From Pascua guehoae (taxonomy: Eukaryota; Basidiomycota; Tremellomycetes; Trichosporonales; Trichosporonaceae), in NCBI GenBank assembly GCA_001600415.1, contig BCJX01000014.1, positions 467,779 to 531,778 on the forward strand: 64,000 bases of DNA, read 5' to 3'. How positions within the stretch are numbered: position 1 is the stretch's first letter; the number at the start of each line of letters is the position of its first letter. The notes beneath the pieces were generated by a model that saw nothing but the letters and a program-made list of their open reading frames with translations, made no database searches and was not told the DNA's origin. The translations under genes were made by a program, and so were the position numbers. Positions 58,341 through 63,742 of the stretch are shown here, one piece after another.

Positions 58341-60516
58341 CTACCGCCTAGGCGCTGGGCTCGGCGTCCAGCTCCGACCCGCCACATTACTCTTGCCCCA
58401 GCCCGACCCCTTCTCCATGATAGAACTGCGCGCACGCGCGCTCACGCTGAGTGCGCCGAGTCCACCGCGCTGGGGTGTGCGCCCTACGGTGCGGTCGAGT
58501 AGACTCCTCGCTGCAGGGGTGAGATTTCCCTCGCGCCGTGGAGTTGAAGGAGGCAGCATGGGACCGCCGCGCACGCTTCGGTCGCCGGAACGAGTCTTTG
58601 CTGCAGCCGCGCGGAGCGTGTCCGTGAGCGACGGCGTCGACGGGATGGGCCGCGGGGCGTGCGCCTTGGCCCGGTCGGCAATCGACTTGCCCGCCTTGTT
58701 CCCCAGCTTGCGGCCGATGTCGTCGCGTCGCTTTGTATCCGGAAGACGGAACGACGGGCCCGAGAGGTCGAGCGGGTCGCCCGAATCGTCGAGCGCGCGA
58801 GGCGTGGCGAGCAGCTTGCCCCACGTCATCAATGGCGGGAGATCCTCGGGTGTCGGGTCAGGGTCCGTGGGGAGCAGCGAGTAGTCCTCGTTAGACTTTG
58901 ATTGGCGGTCTGATTGTCAGATGTTGTTCTAGTCATGTGCACGTACATGGCGTTCCTTTGACGGCGGCATCGACCCAGGAGCCGGCCACACTGCTCGCCC
59001 GACGGCTGCTGGCAACGCCAGAGTCATCCTCCTCATCGGGTAGGCGTGTGTTTGCGTGTGCGATTTGCGGAGGCGCCCCATGCGCCGTGACAGGAGGCGC
59101 ATCCGTAGGTTTCGGGTACGGCTTTTTGTATGCGTCGGGTGGGAACATGAGCGGGTTCATTGTCTGTTTGTCAGCCGGCTGCCAATACCACTGGACGTAC
59201 CTTGTACTCCCACTGGTCTGTGCCACCGTTCGAAGGCTCCACCTCTTGCTGCTCATCGCCCATGACCTCCCGTTCAATAGCCTTGCGGCGATCACGTTCT
59301 TCTTCTCCACGCCCGCGCCCGTCGCCACTGCCGCCGACAGCCTCGCGTTGTGGGACGATCGCACCGTCCTTGGTCGACACAAGGGCGGTGGGAGGAAGTC
59401 CTGCGGTGACGAGTGCACGGGTCAGGGGGTGGTCCTCTGGTAGTGGCTCCTCGGTGACAGCTGGTGGTTGGAGGGCTGATGATGCAGACGCGTCCGTTTT
59501 CTTGATGAGCGCGCCCGATTTTGAGAGCACCAGGGCCGTCTTGGAATCAGATGGCTCTCCCTCCTCCTCCTGGTTATCATCCTTGGAAATCTCTGCAGCC
59601 CCGCTTGTGAGAAGCTTGCGCTGCTTCCATGCTTCCCCTTCCGCCCGTTCTGTTCCGCCCTCTGCAAGACCGCCGATGAGCCGTCTCCCATTTGCGTCCA
59701 CTCGCCATGCGCCCGATGTTGCTGCGTCGAGGATGAGTTTTCGGCGTTCCTCGCCCGCGATTCGTCGGTCTGCCGCAACCCGTTCCACTTCAAACGCCCA
59801 CGCCCAGCGCTCTTCGCGACGCTGGCGGTTTTCTTCTTCCACAATCTGCGCAAACGACGCATTGTCCTCGGATGTATAATTTCGTTGGAACGCATCAAGG
59901 CTGAGGTCGTCATGAACAACCGGCGCTTTTCTGCGCTTGTATGGCCTCGAGGGACCCGCTCCGTCGTCGTCAAGCATGTCGTATGCGTCTTCGGCCTCGG
60001 CTGGGCGCCGACGAACAGTGTCATCTCCGCGTGGTGTTTCCCAACCTCGGGCTCCAAGCGGGGTTCGATGTGGCCTTCCTCGTCCGCCGAGAGAAACGTA
60101 AGGTGTACCCGCCATCTGCAGCTCGCGCCGACGGGCATTCTCAGCCTCGAGTTCGGCCTCGGACCGATCACGAGACGACGACCCACGAGCCGACCGTCCA
60201 CCTTCCTTTTCCTCGGCAATGCGCGCGAGGCGCCGGATCGACGATGACAGGAGCTCTGGGTCATTGTTTGACAGAGCTGTAAGATAGTCGTTTGTGGCGT
60301 GTAGTTGTGGAAGGCCTGGGAAGAAGTCGCGCCCAATGATATGGGATAGCGCTTCCGTGTACTTGTCCTCCTGCATGTCAGCGAGGACGGATGACTACGA
60401 CTTACGTCAAGAACTTGCTGTCTGTATAGACTTCTATTGCCGACTTGGGGACCCTCGATGAGTTTTGGTGCTGATCCGGGCCGGGGCTTGAGGCCGTCGT
60501 TGCCCGTGTCGAGCAT
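58341..60516 (-). CDS. ESS2: Splicing-associated protein ESS2/DGCR14/Bis1
   Basis: Nuclear protein associated with the catalytic spliceosome. Exons 60516-60406, 60370-59201, 59163-58947 and 58909-58341 give 688 residues. The family hallmark is at the N-terminus: RQQVLDEDKYTEALSHIIGRDFFPGLPQLHATNDYL. The central ES2 region follows: LSLDAFQRNYTSEDNASFAQIVEEENRQRRE...WAWAFEVE. The conserved C-terminal part has YKTMNPLMFPPD, LMTWGKLLATP, SGPSFRLPDTKRRDDIGRKLGNKAGKSIADRAKA and TPAARSLLDRT. A disordered Glu/Arg-rich linker lies between. It is longer than animal ESS2 (about 480 residues) because of low-complexity linkers. It is divergent from the amidotransferase gene, 408 bp apart. Confidence 0.92.
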
Positions 60517-60924: not shown

Positions 60925-62069
60925 ATGGTCAAGCGAATCGTCCGCGTCGCCCTCCTCCTCTGCGACACTCCCGTGAGTCATCCGTCCACCAGCCCCTGCT
61001 GACAACAGCTCGAACCCATTCGCAAGGAATGTGGAACCTGTGCGTGTCAACAATGTTCTGCGCTCTGCACGACTGTGACTAACGGTTAGACTATGACATC
61101 TACAAGGACTGGCTCCTCAAGGCTCTTGCCAACTACCCAGACGCTACCGTTGCCCAGGGCACCGAGCTCGTGATGGACGGTTATGACGTTGTCACCAAGC
61201 AGGAGTATCCACCAGCCGAGCGCCTCAAGGCTGGTGGACCGGACGCGTACGATGTGGTGATGCTCACTGGGTCTAGTACGTGCCATTTCAGTTTACTTTG
61301 ACACTGTCACCTTGCTTGTTTTGCGCCCATCTGCGACTTGGACACTTTCCCTCCCTTGCTGCCCTTCCTTCGCCTTCCCCGCTACGCGTTCTCTGTCCCA
61401 CTGCACAACTAACACTCTCAGAGCACACGTCATATGACCCAAAGAGCCCTTTCGCCCCCACCCTCATCTCGTTTGTCCGTGACGTCGCGTCGTCTCCCAA
61501 GACCCAGCACATCAAGCTCGTTGGTGTCTGCTACGGCCACCAGATCATCTCCCTCGCGCTGGGGGGAGAGTGCTGCCAGGGTCAGAACGGCTGGGAGATC
61601 GGTGTCTATGGGTGCAACATTACAAAGGAGGGCCGCTGGTGGTGGTCCGACTCTGTGGCGCAGAACGGCTCTGATAAGATTGTGAGTTGGAGCTCATCCG
61701 TTCCGCATGCTAATTCCACAGTATGTCGAGCAAATGCACAAGGACCACGTCCCAACCCTTCCCCCCGGCTGCCAGCTTCTCCTCACGTCGGACAAGTACC
61801 CCGTCCACTCGTTCGCCAAGCTCCACTCGTCGTCTACTCCCGACAAGCCGCGCGCCCAGGTCTTCACGATCCAGGGCCACCCCGAGTTCACGCCATTCAT
61901 TGTTTCGCACATTGTGGACGTGCGTGAGGGGGCTGGTATCTTCAACCCCGAAACTGCTGCCGAGGCACGCCGTCGCCTTCCAGGCAAGGACGGCAACGGA
62001 GGAGAAGGATACGGTCGTCTTGGCGCTGCAATCTGGCGTGTCATGCTCGAGGAGCTCCCGCCAAAGTGA
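60925..62069 (+). CDS. Class I glutamine amidotransferase-like protein
   Basis: Exons 60925-60972, 61009-61039, 61090-61275, 61422-61681 and 61722-62069 give 290 residues if the frame ends at TGA 62067-62069. The fold is GMP-synthase-like GATase1: nucleophile Cys125 in LVGVCYGHQI, oxyanion region MLTGSKHTSYD, and catalytic His228/Glu230 in TIQGHPEF. An EQMHKDHVPTLPPG segment matches YLR126C/SPCC-type fungal relatives, whose substrate is unknown. Hydrolysis of glutamine or a gamma-glutamyl compound is the family expectation. The terminal AAGTGAG is also a good intron donor: splicing from 62065 to 62128 removes the stop and continues in frame into UBA3. So this may be the N-terminal part of a fusion, or an intron-retained form. 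Confidence 0.88.
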
Positions 62070-62127
62070 GATCTTCCATCTGAGCTACTAGAACGAGGAG
62101 AATCATGGGCTAATGCAATCTTGTCAG
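62066..62127 (+). other. Candidate 62-nt intron joining GATase and UBA3
   Basis: Donor AAA/GTGAGA, branch GGGCTAATGC, acceptor TTGTCAG/CC. The size and signals equal those of undisputed introns in this window. Splicing joins CCA-AA to C-CCA-TAC, keeping frame. No GT lies between the GATase stop and the acceptor except within TTGTCAG, and no in-frame ATG precedes the conserved UBA3 N-terminus. Confidence 0.6.
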
Positions 62128-63742
62128 CCCATACGTGTCCGACGAATCGCGCTACACTCATATTGACAAGATTCTCGACCGCGCAGGCCCTTCAACAGAT
62201 CCAGACTACGACGCAGAACTGGTGCGCTTCTAACTCTCTGACAATGCTGACGTCCAAGGCCAAAAAGATGCTTCGTCATGACGCCAAGGTGCTGGTCATT
62301 GGTGCCGGTGGACTGGGCTGCGAGATCCTTCAGAACCTCGCCCTCAGTATGTGCTTGGTTCGTTACGCTCGCTAACAGTCAGCGGGTTTCAGCGACATCC
62401 ATGTCATCGACATGGACACTATTGACGTGTCCAACCTGAACCGCCAGTTCTTGTTCCGGTAAGTTGACTCTTTTGGTACGACACTAACGATGCAAGCGAA
62501 GCAGACGTCGGCAAGTCTAAAGCACGGGTGGCGGCCGCCTTTATCATGAAGCGCGTACCTGGTGTCAAGGTTACTGCGTGAGTGCGACGTATCGTTGACC
62601 TCCTAACAAATTAGCCACCACAGCAAGATCCAGGACCACCCAATTTCGTTTTACATGCAGTTTGACATTGTCATCGCGGGCCTTGACTCGATCTCTGCGC
62701 GCCGCTGGATCAATGCCACGCTTGTGTCCATGGTCGACGAGGAGAACCCCAAGAGCCTCAAGCCTCTCATCGATGGTGGCACCGAAGGTGAGAAGGTTCT
62801 ACAAACAACAAGAGGTGCTAACAAATGACAGGTTTCAAGGGGCAGGCTCGTGTGATCCTCCCGACCATTACGTCATGCTATGAGTGCTCGGTGAGGGCTT
62901 TGACATGAGTTTGGGCTGACTCCAGATCGACATGCTCACCCCTCCTACCGCATTCCCTATCTGCACCATCGCCAACACCCCGCGTTTGCCCGAGCATTGC
63001 ATTGAGTGGGCGAGTGTCCTCGAGTGGCCTCGCATGTTCAAGGGTGGGTACCTCTACGGTCGTGTACAGATCTCACCCATCAGACAAGAAACTTGACACG
63101 GATGACCCGGAGCACATCGACTGGCTCTTTGAAAAGGCGTCGACTCGCGCGGCCGAGTTTAACATTGAGGGCGTGACCTGGCAACTCACACAGGGTGTCG
63201 TCAAGAACATTATCCCTGCGATTGCCAGCACGAACGCCATCATTTCGGCTTCTTGCTGCAACGAGGCACTCAAGATCGCAACGAGCAGTGCTCCGTTCCT
63301 CAACAACTACATGATGGTGTGTCTGCTTGGCTCGGATCTTCCCAGGCTTACACAACAGTATGTGGGCAACGACTCGGTCTACACGTTCACGTTTGAACAT
63401 GAAAAACGTCCCGAGTGCCCCGTGTGCGGTGGCGAGTCGCTTTCTGCCCAGGTTGGCCGTGACTGGACGCTTGAGAAACTCGTCGAGTGGCTTGAGCTGC
63501 GTCAAGATCTGTGAGTTTGCTGTCGGGCAAGTCGAGGCTGACTGAGAAGGCAGATCAAGCGCCCCTCGCTCGCGTACTCTTCTGGCGCACCGCTCTTCTT
63601 CCAGGCGCCACCACAGCTCTACGAGACAACCAAGGGTAACTTGGAGAAGCTGGTGGTTGACCTTGTACCCGAGGGCGAGGAGCTGGTGGTGACCGATCCT
63701 GGGCTGCCGTTCAACCTCACTGTGGCTGTGTCATTCACGTAG
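62128..63742 (+). CDS. UBA3: NEDD8-activating enzyme E1 catalytic subunit Uba3
   Basis: Adenylates NEDD8/Rub1 with its Ula1/APPBP1 partner and passes it to Ubc12 for cullin modification. Exons 62128-62221, 62259-62346, 62383-62458, 62497-62577, 62615-62787, 62832-62890, 62926-63043, 63084-63316, 63359-63510 and 63550-63742, 422 residues. The N-terminus SRYTHIDKILDRAGPSTDP matches Uba3 starts. Also present: ATP-binding VLVIGAGGLGCEIL, HVIDMDTIDVSNLNRQFLFR, zinc-binding SCYEC and CPVCGG, catalytic Cys in FPICTIANTPRLPEHCIEW, and a ubiquitin-fold C-terminal domain from QIKRPSLAY. The first internal intron (62222-62258) is only 37 nt. No in-frame ATG precedes the conserved start; the first one, at MLRHDAKVL in exon 2, would drop about 34 residues. 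Initiation therefore seems to depend on the upstream GATase exon. Confidence 0.92.

What the first reader, a model, noticed from the sequence alone, without database searches (positions are those of the whole stretch)
60925..63742. Predicted amidotransferase-UBA3 splice fusion
The stop codon of a class I glutamine amidotransferase ORF overlaps a strong intron donor (AAA/GTGAGA). A 62-nt intron with a CTAAT branch point and TTGTCAG acceptor leads in frame into the conserved N-terminus of UBA3. No in-frame ATG exists for full-length UBA3 between the preceding in-frame TAA and exon 2. The simplest reading is one 711-residue protein carrying an intact GATase triad (Cys125, His228, Glu230) and the whole NEDD8 E1 catalytic subunit. 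Intron retention would release a 290-residue GATase alone, so the stop/donor overlap could act as a splicing switch. The fusion of glutamine amidotransfer chemistry with neddylation is not one I know to be described.
Basis: partly seen in the sequence, partly recalled or inferred. Interest (0 to 1): 0.85.

Follow-up and report, generated by a model that had tools for sequence, protein, structure and literature searches.

The report
Peptidase-like domain fused to neddylation E1
In a group of yeasts related to jelly fungi, the enzyme that starts neddylation is predicted to be made as one chain with a second, apparently unrelated peptidase-like enzyme; relatives share the fusion, and what it does is untested.

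Summary
Fifteen exons (60925-63742, +) give one 711-residue protein: a class I GATase-fold domain with an intact Cys125/His228/Glu230 triad, then a complete UBA3. A 62-nt intron (62066-62127) joins them. Independent evidence for the fusion: four database proteins hold both halves; four short ORFs from relatives run from one half into the other without a stop or intron; and no second copy of either half was found in this genome. In Cryptococcus and Kwoniella the halves are separate genes.

The stop/donor overlap is automatic for a phase-2 intron whose donor is GTGA or GTAA: 4 of 4 phase-2 introns in this gene show it, so it is no evidence for a switch. A switch stays possible, because the released GATase would end about where stand-alone homologues end, and Neurospora nit-7 works that way. 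Second, the GATase half is nearest in sequence and predicted fold to Arabidopsis gamma-glutamyl peptidase 1; amidotransfer chemistry is not indicated.

Best reading: two independent enzymes on one chain. My paper searches listed no description of this pair.

The parts
60925..62065 (+). GATase-fold (gamma-glutamyl-peptidase-like) half, 5 exons: 60925-60972, 61009-61039, 61090-61275, 61422-61681, 61722-62065; Cys125, His228, Glu230
   Evidence: Pfam PF00117, 34.3 bits against a cut-off of 22.8
62067..62069 (+). TGA that would end a 290-residue GATase if the junction intron were kept
62066..62127 (+). junction intron, 62 nt, phase 2, GTGAGA...CTAAT...TTGTCAG
62043..62045 (+). ATG (Met283) in frame with UBA3 after splicing; possible start of an internal UBA3-only form
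62111..62113 (+). TAA that closes the UBA3 frame upstream if the junction intron is not removed
62128..63742 (+). UBA3 half (NEDD8 E1 catalytic subunit), 10 exons: 62128-62221, 62259-62346, 62383-62458, 62497-62577, 62615-62787, 62832-62890, 62926-63043, 63084-63316, 63359-63510, 63550-63742 (stop included)
   Evidence: ThiF 193.8 bits, E2_bind 80.4 bits; residues 296-710 align with 6-432 of human UBA3 (1tt5_B, E 3.3e-133)

Best explanation
The gene encodes one bifunctional chain. An intact class I GATase-fold enzyme, most likely a gamma-glutamyl hydrolase or peptidase, is tethered by a short linker to the N-terminus of a complete UBA3, which should pair with ULA1/APPBP1 and activate NEDD8 as usual. 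Splicing of the 62-nt junction intron removes the stop and joins the frames. Shown by sequence: the frame, the domains, the triad, no second copy of either half found in the genome, and the same domain pair in relatives. Inferred: that this intron is normally spliced in this species, that both domains are active, and that they act independently so that the fusion mainly ensures co-expression. If the fusion arose once, it predates the split of Trichosporonales from some Tremellales lineages; in Cryptococcus and Kwoniella the halves are separate genes.
For: Four full-length relatives carry both halves (713, 730, 746 and 756 aa) and align with the window protein at 70-76% identity, apart from the linker and small gaps. 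P0176, P0183, P0184 and P0209, 4 of the 120 rows listed of 157 found by the GATase search, run from the GATase C-terminus through a coding linker into the UBA3 N-terminus without a stop; read by eye, all four lose UBA3 similarity just after the FxGG-like stretch, about where the window has intron 6, as unspliced ORFs would. P0012 (Cryptotrichosporon argae, 518 aa) joins the GATase C-terminus to UBA3; P0154, on a contig of the same length, is the GATase N-terminus. P0003 comes from a 3958-base contig and is collinear at all 14 intron positions of this gene, as a spliced transcript would be. Matches to the GATase half in the own genome all lie in this gene (3 of 3); of 11 matches to the UBA3 half, 7 lie in this gene and 4 are weaker ones elsewhere. 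Triad and the PICT cysteine are conserved in 5 of 5 fused proteins, window included. A model of the Vanrija fusion (P0002) shows a confident GATase domain and a low-confidence stretch at 293-301 in the linker.
Against: There are no RNA or protein data for this species. 115 of the 120 listed rows of the UBA3 search (3682 found) show no GATase motif, so UBA3 does not need it, although a few of these may be mis-split models. The named full-length fusions are presumably gene predictions. Two near relatives (P0148, P0151) are known only as ORFs that stop at the junction, which would also fit a separate GATase gene. No activity of the GATase half is known. In the GATase tree the well-supported branches force at least 3 changes of the fused label, so a single origin is not shown.
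Confidence: 0.82

Rival explanations
1. Splicing switch: regulated retention of the junction intron makes a free 290-residue GATase beside the fusion, so one intron sets the ratio of free peptidase to NEDD8 E1, as in Neurospora nit-7.
For: The retained product ends ...LEELPPK; 28 of the 32 rows that hold the WRVLL-like motif end 3-10 residues after it, 7 of them, from Cryptococcus, with ...LPPA. P0148 and P0151 have ORFs that stop at the same place with ...LPAK. In N. crassa the unspliced nit-7 transcript gives NIT-7A and the spliced one NIT-7AB (PMC7232280, passages). Intron retention is the commonest alternative splicing in C. neoformans and mostly independent of NMD (PMC5006051, abstract and passages).
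Against: A stop at the donor is automatic here: 4 of 4 phase-2 introns of this gene have it. The four relatives whose junction is one open ORF cannot do this. The C. neoformans authors conclude that alternative splicing does little to diversify the proteome.
Confidence: 0.15
2. UBA3 is also or mainly made from its own transcript that starts inside the GATase gene, using Met283 (giving MLEELPPNPYVSDESRY...) or another small first exon.
For: A scan of ATGs in 61400-62127 found 7 ATG-plus-donor combinations that reach the UBA3 acceptor in frame; the shortest in the native frame is ATG 62043 with the same junction intron. UBA3 models with their own Met exist in Tremella, Naematelia, Cryptococcus and others.
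Against: I made no shuffled control for these combinations; some are expected by chance. Relatives keep an open frame across the junction, which a separate gene would not need.
Confidence: 0.1
3. The two halves are chemically or regulatorily coupled: the GATase domain acts on NEDD8 or on the E1-bound acyl-adenylate or thioester (for example amidation or removal of gamma-glutamyl groups), or senses a gamma-glutamyl metabolite to tune neddylation.
For: Triad conserved in 5 of 5 fused proteins. Several amidotransferases feed ammonia to a partner that activates a carboxyl group with ATP, and an E1 makes an acyl-adenylate (recalled chemistry, no call).
Against: The linker varies in length between relatives and part of it is low confidence in the model, so no fixed channel is indicated. 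The nearest solved relative is a peptidase. Cryptococcus and Kwoniella keep the two apart.
Confidence: 0.04
4. Artefact: assembly or gene-model error joining two ordinary neighbouring genes.
For: Gene predictors can merge close neighbours (recalled); the junction depends on one intron here.
Against: Open ORFs across the junction in four other sequences and full-length fusions in four more.
Confidence: 0.03

Closest known systems
UBA3, NEDD8-activating enzyme E1 catalytic subunit (human; PDB 1tt5, 3gzn)
   Same: Residues 296-710 align with nearly all of human UBA3, including the PxCT cysteine and the E2-binding domain.
   Different: 115 of the 120 listed rows of the UBA3 search show no GATase motif.
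Gamma-glutamyl peptidase 1 of Arabidopsis (PDB 9k7i-9k7l)
   Different: Low identity. Plant GGPs process glutathione conjugates (PMC11449216, passages); the substrate of the fungal enzyme is unknown.
Stand-alone class I GATase-like proteins of Cryptococcus and Kwoniella ('cytoplasmic protein')
   Same: 46-64% identical in the listed rows; most end at or within a few residues of the window's retained-intron product.
   Different: Separate gene; in 5 of the 6 strains whose locus tags I could pair it lies 16-41 tags from UBA3 on a contig of equal length.
nit-7 / MOCS1 (Moco-synthesis enzymes made apart or fused through splicing)
   Same: In nit-7 one intron decides between an N-terminal enzyme alone and a two-enzyme fusion (PMC7232280, passages).
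   Different: nit-7 joins two domains of one pathway step; here no shared pathway is known, and the switch is not shown.

Membership tests
UBA3 (NEDD8 E1 catalytic subunit) | ThiF adenylation domain with glycine-rich GAGGLG motif | tested here: met
   PF00899 193.8 bits; GAGGLGCE at 336
UBA3 (NEDD8 E1 catalytic subunit) | Catalytic cysteine and C-terminal E2-binding domain | tested here: met
   PICT Cys493 in 5 of 5, aligned with PMCT of human UBA3; PF08825 80.4 bits. That this Cys is the catalytic one is recalled.
UBA3 (NEDD8 E1 catalytic subunit) | Best match is UBA3, not UBA2 or UBA1 | tested here: met
   448.7 bits to UBA3, 177.8 to SUMO E1 subunit 2, 158.1 to human UBA1
UBA3 (NEDD8 E1 catalytic subunit) | Activates NEDD8 with ULA1/APPBP1 | not testable with these tools
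   needs an enzyme assay
Class I glutamine amidotransferase fold | Cys-His-Glu triad in the class I arrangement | tested here: met
   Cys125, His228, Glu230; PF00117 34.3 bits
Gamma-glutamyl peptidase (GGP1-like) | Closest solved structure in sequence and fold is GGP1 | tested here: met
   the fold test was made on Vanrija P0002, not on the window protein
Gamma-glutamyl peptidase (GGP1-like) | Cleaves gamma-glutamyl bonds | not testable with these tools
   no assay; identity to GGP1 is low (25% over the fold)
nit-7-type splice switch | Retention of the junction intron ends the chain after a complete first enzyme | tested here: met
   TGA at 62067; end comparable to stand-alone homologues
nit-7-type splice switch | Both mRNA forms exist and are regulated | not testable with these tools
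   no RNA data

The most novel reading that the evidence does not exclude
A gamma-glutamyl-metabolising enzyme has been built into the NEDD8 E1 of Tremellales and Trichosporonales and couples thiol or nitrogen status to cullin neddylation; in Trichosporonales with the junction intron, splicing efficiency sets how much of the peptidase is free and how much is bound to the E1.
Probability: 0.1. Interest if true: 0.82.

Novelty: new variant of a known kind. Interest (0 to 1): 0.5.

Why it matters
UBA3 normally carries no extra catalytic domain (115 of 120 listed rows here show no GATase motif). A domain with an intact catalytic triad, fused to it in members of two fungal orders, is a natural gene-fusion hint that gamma-glutamyl metabolism and cullin control may be linked, and one point mutation can test it. 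The case also shows a general pitfall: a stop codon at a splice donor looks regulatory but follows from intron phase.

Tried and rejected
Stop/donor overlap as evidence of regulation: rejected after listing all 14 introns. Donors are GTGA or GTAA in 8 of 14; the 4 phase-2 introns (5, 8, 9, 14) all have the stop one base into the donor.

Search for relatives' genomic DNA: viral contigs gave 32 pattern matches and no relative; prokaryote genome contigs gave 75 pattern matches and one bacterial locus at 29% identity, not relevant. The cap for metagenome contigs was 0, so I made no such scan. The junction DNA of P0001, P0002, P0148 and P0151 was not read; whether they share the intron is inferred, for P0148 and P0151, from the protein ends only.

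Trees (25 of the 120 listed UBA3 rows plus the window, and 25 of the 120 listed GATase rows plus P0001-P0004 and the window): fused rows are not one clade. The UBA3 tree (26 rows) needs 4 changes of the label, with 1 forced by starred branches; the GATase tree (30 rows) needs 5, with 3 forced. Both are rooted at the midpoint and disagree about Cryptococcus/Kwoniella (nested in the UBA3 tree, basal in the GATase tree). Rows counted as unfused include partial or possibly mis-split ones (Naematelia, Saitozyma, Papiliotrema, jgi148, lgn151, lgn155, lgn156, ena164), so I draw no count of gains and losses. One old fusion with later fission is my preference, not a result.

Papers, all search listings: (20 of 200 listed; 0 found; 12 of 265; 10 of 922; 10 of 19) listed no paper on a GATase-UBA3 fusion by title or abstract start; (YLR126C, 10 of 10) showed no study of that protein in its titles; others (8 of 215; 8 of 34) were for the nit-7/MOCS1 precedent and GGP. 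These cover only the held open-licence library. PMC4503453 (polycistronic transcripts in mushrooms) I saw in passages; they do not mention this gene.

Structure: alignment A2 (47 rows, full and half-length mixed) gave mean pLDDT 81.6 and pTM 0.47, so I did not use the placement of the two domains relative to each other. Parts of the UBA3 half are under pLDDT 50 (502-518, 606-613, 615-630). The window protein itself was not modelled.

NCBIfam scan gave only matches below the curated cut-offs in the rows shown, to E1/ThiF and glutamine amidotransferase models; not used.

Full report
What is there. The window lies in an unnamed 33.6-Mb genome in 28 contigs. Of the full-length fused proteins found, the closest (76% identity) is from Vanrija albida, with C. 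spelunceum and P0003 at 73%; Vanrija and Cutaneotrichosporon are Trichosporonales, and the window groups with them in both trees, so this is very probably a member of that order. The species was not identified. On the + strand 15 exons from 60925 to 63742 give a 711-residue protein. Pfam finds GATase (PF00117), ThiF (PF00899) and E2_bind (PF08825), all above their cut-offs, and a weak Shikimate_DH match below its cut-off. Residues 296-710 align with residues 6-432 of human UBA3.

The junction. Exon 5 ends at 62065 and exon 6 starts at 62128. Left in place, the intron gives TGA at 62067 and a 290-residue protein. Spliced, the frame continues LEELPPN-PYVSDESRYTHIDK. The unspliced UBA3 frame has a TAA at 62111 and no ATG between it and exon 6. 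The intron has a good donor, a CTAAT and a TTGTCAG acceptor, but it is longer than 12 of the other 13 introns of the gene and its branch-like motif is the farthest from the acceptor.

Is the stop/donor overlap meaningful? For a phase-2 intron the codon that spans the boundary takes the G of GT, so the next codon is TGA or TAA whenever the donor is GTGA or GTAA. All 4 phase-2 introns of this gene show this. The overlap therefore says nothing about regulation. What is less trivial is that the released protein would look complete: of 32 listed GATase rows that hold the WRVLL-like motif, 28 end 3-10 residues after it (three of these are marked partial), the window's retained product ends 7 residues after it, and the other 4 are the run-on rows. 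P0148 and P0151, which group with the window in a well-supported set of 6, have ORFs ending LPAK at this point.

Is the fusion real? A search restricted to the GATase half but to proteins of fusion length found 8 proteins among 2394 candidates: 4 carry GATase plus UBA3 domains, 3 GATase plus aldehyde dehydrogenase, and 1 GATase plus WD40 repeats. The four GATase-UBA3 proteins align with the window protein over its length apart from the linker and small gaps. Gene predictors could merge neighbours, so the stronger evidence is unspliced: of the 120 rows listed (157 found) for the GATase alone, 4 (P0176, P0183, P0184, P0209) continue through a coding linker into the UBA3 N-terminus with no stop. 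Read by eye, rows from the same kinds of source run into intron sequence elsewhere (P0148 and P0151 near introns 3 and 4, the four run-on rows near intron 6), so they look unspliced. By the same logic P0003, collinear at all 14 intron positions on a 3958-base contig, looks like a spliced transcript; I could not read the contig. Of the 120 rows listed for UBA3 (3682 found), 5 hold a GATase motif: P0001-P0004 and P0012.

Genome context. In the own genome 3 of 3 matches to the GATase half lie in this gene. Of 11 matches to the UBA3 half, 7 lie in this gene; the other 4, on two contigs, are 28-49% identical and I take them for other E1-like genes. The search works exon by exon on the best candidates only, so it does not strictly exclude a diverged copy. 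As far as it shows, the fusion gene is the only source of UBA3. Upstream and divergent lies a gene of the Es2 family.

Distribution. Fused: this species, Cutaneotrichosporon spelunceum, Vanrija albida, Cryptotrichosporon argae (split model), Tremellales sp. Uapishka_1 and five unnamed sequences (P0003, P0176, P0183, P0184, P0209). Apart: Cryptococcus and Kwoniella. In 5 of 6 strains whose locus tags I could pair, the two genes are 16-41 tags apart on contigs of equal length (Cryptococcus sp. DSM 104549, K. newhampshirensis, K. sp. B9012, K. shivajii, K. sp. DSM 27419); in C. decagattii the contig lengths differ. Tag distance is a proxy for gene distance. Naematelia and Saitozyma have a 'partial' GATase record and a UBA3 record on contigs of equal length, and Papiliotrema a 'partial' GATase record only; they may be fused genes cut by the predictor. 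The trees do not settle how often fusion or fission happened, and the GATase tree forces at least 3 changes of the label as I set it.

How it most likely works. Two enzymes on one chain, joined by a linker whose length varies between species and part of which is poorly ordered in the model. This speaks for tethering without a fixed channel. UBA3 would do its normal work. The gain may be no more than joint expression. A splice switch of the nit-7 kind (PMC7232280, passages) is possible in species with the junction intron; intron retention is common and mostly NMD-independent in C. neoformans, whose authors however see little effect on the proteome (PMC5006051, abstract and passages).

Novelty. 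The domain pair is present in public records, two of them under NEDD8-activating-enzyme names from the source, but searches listed no paper describing it. The kind of event, two enzyme domains joined through an intron at the seam, is known. I therefore call it a new variant of a known kind.

Noticed in passing
P0005, P0006, P0008: The same GATase family is annotated as fused to aldehyde dehydrogenase in two Aspergillus species and Penicillium expansum, and to WD40 repeats in Boothiomyces (P0007); whether these are real fusions was not tested.
   Followed up: no
window 59171-60376 (-): Divergent neighbour encodes an Es2 nuclear protein (PF09751, 146.5 bits).
   Followed up: partly
P0012 and P0154, Cryptotrichosporon argae: The deposited models look like one fused gene split in the middle of the GATase domain.
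   Followed up: partly
Cryptococcus and Kwoniella records: GATase and UBA3 genes are unfused but lie 16-41 locus tags apart in 5 of 6 paired strains, which fits old linkage; whether before or after the fusion is open.
   Followed up: partly
P0153, Naematelia encephala: A second, divergent GATase copy on a long branch.
   Followed up: no
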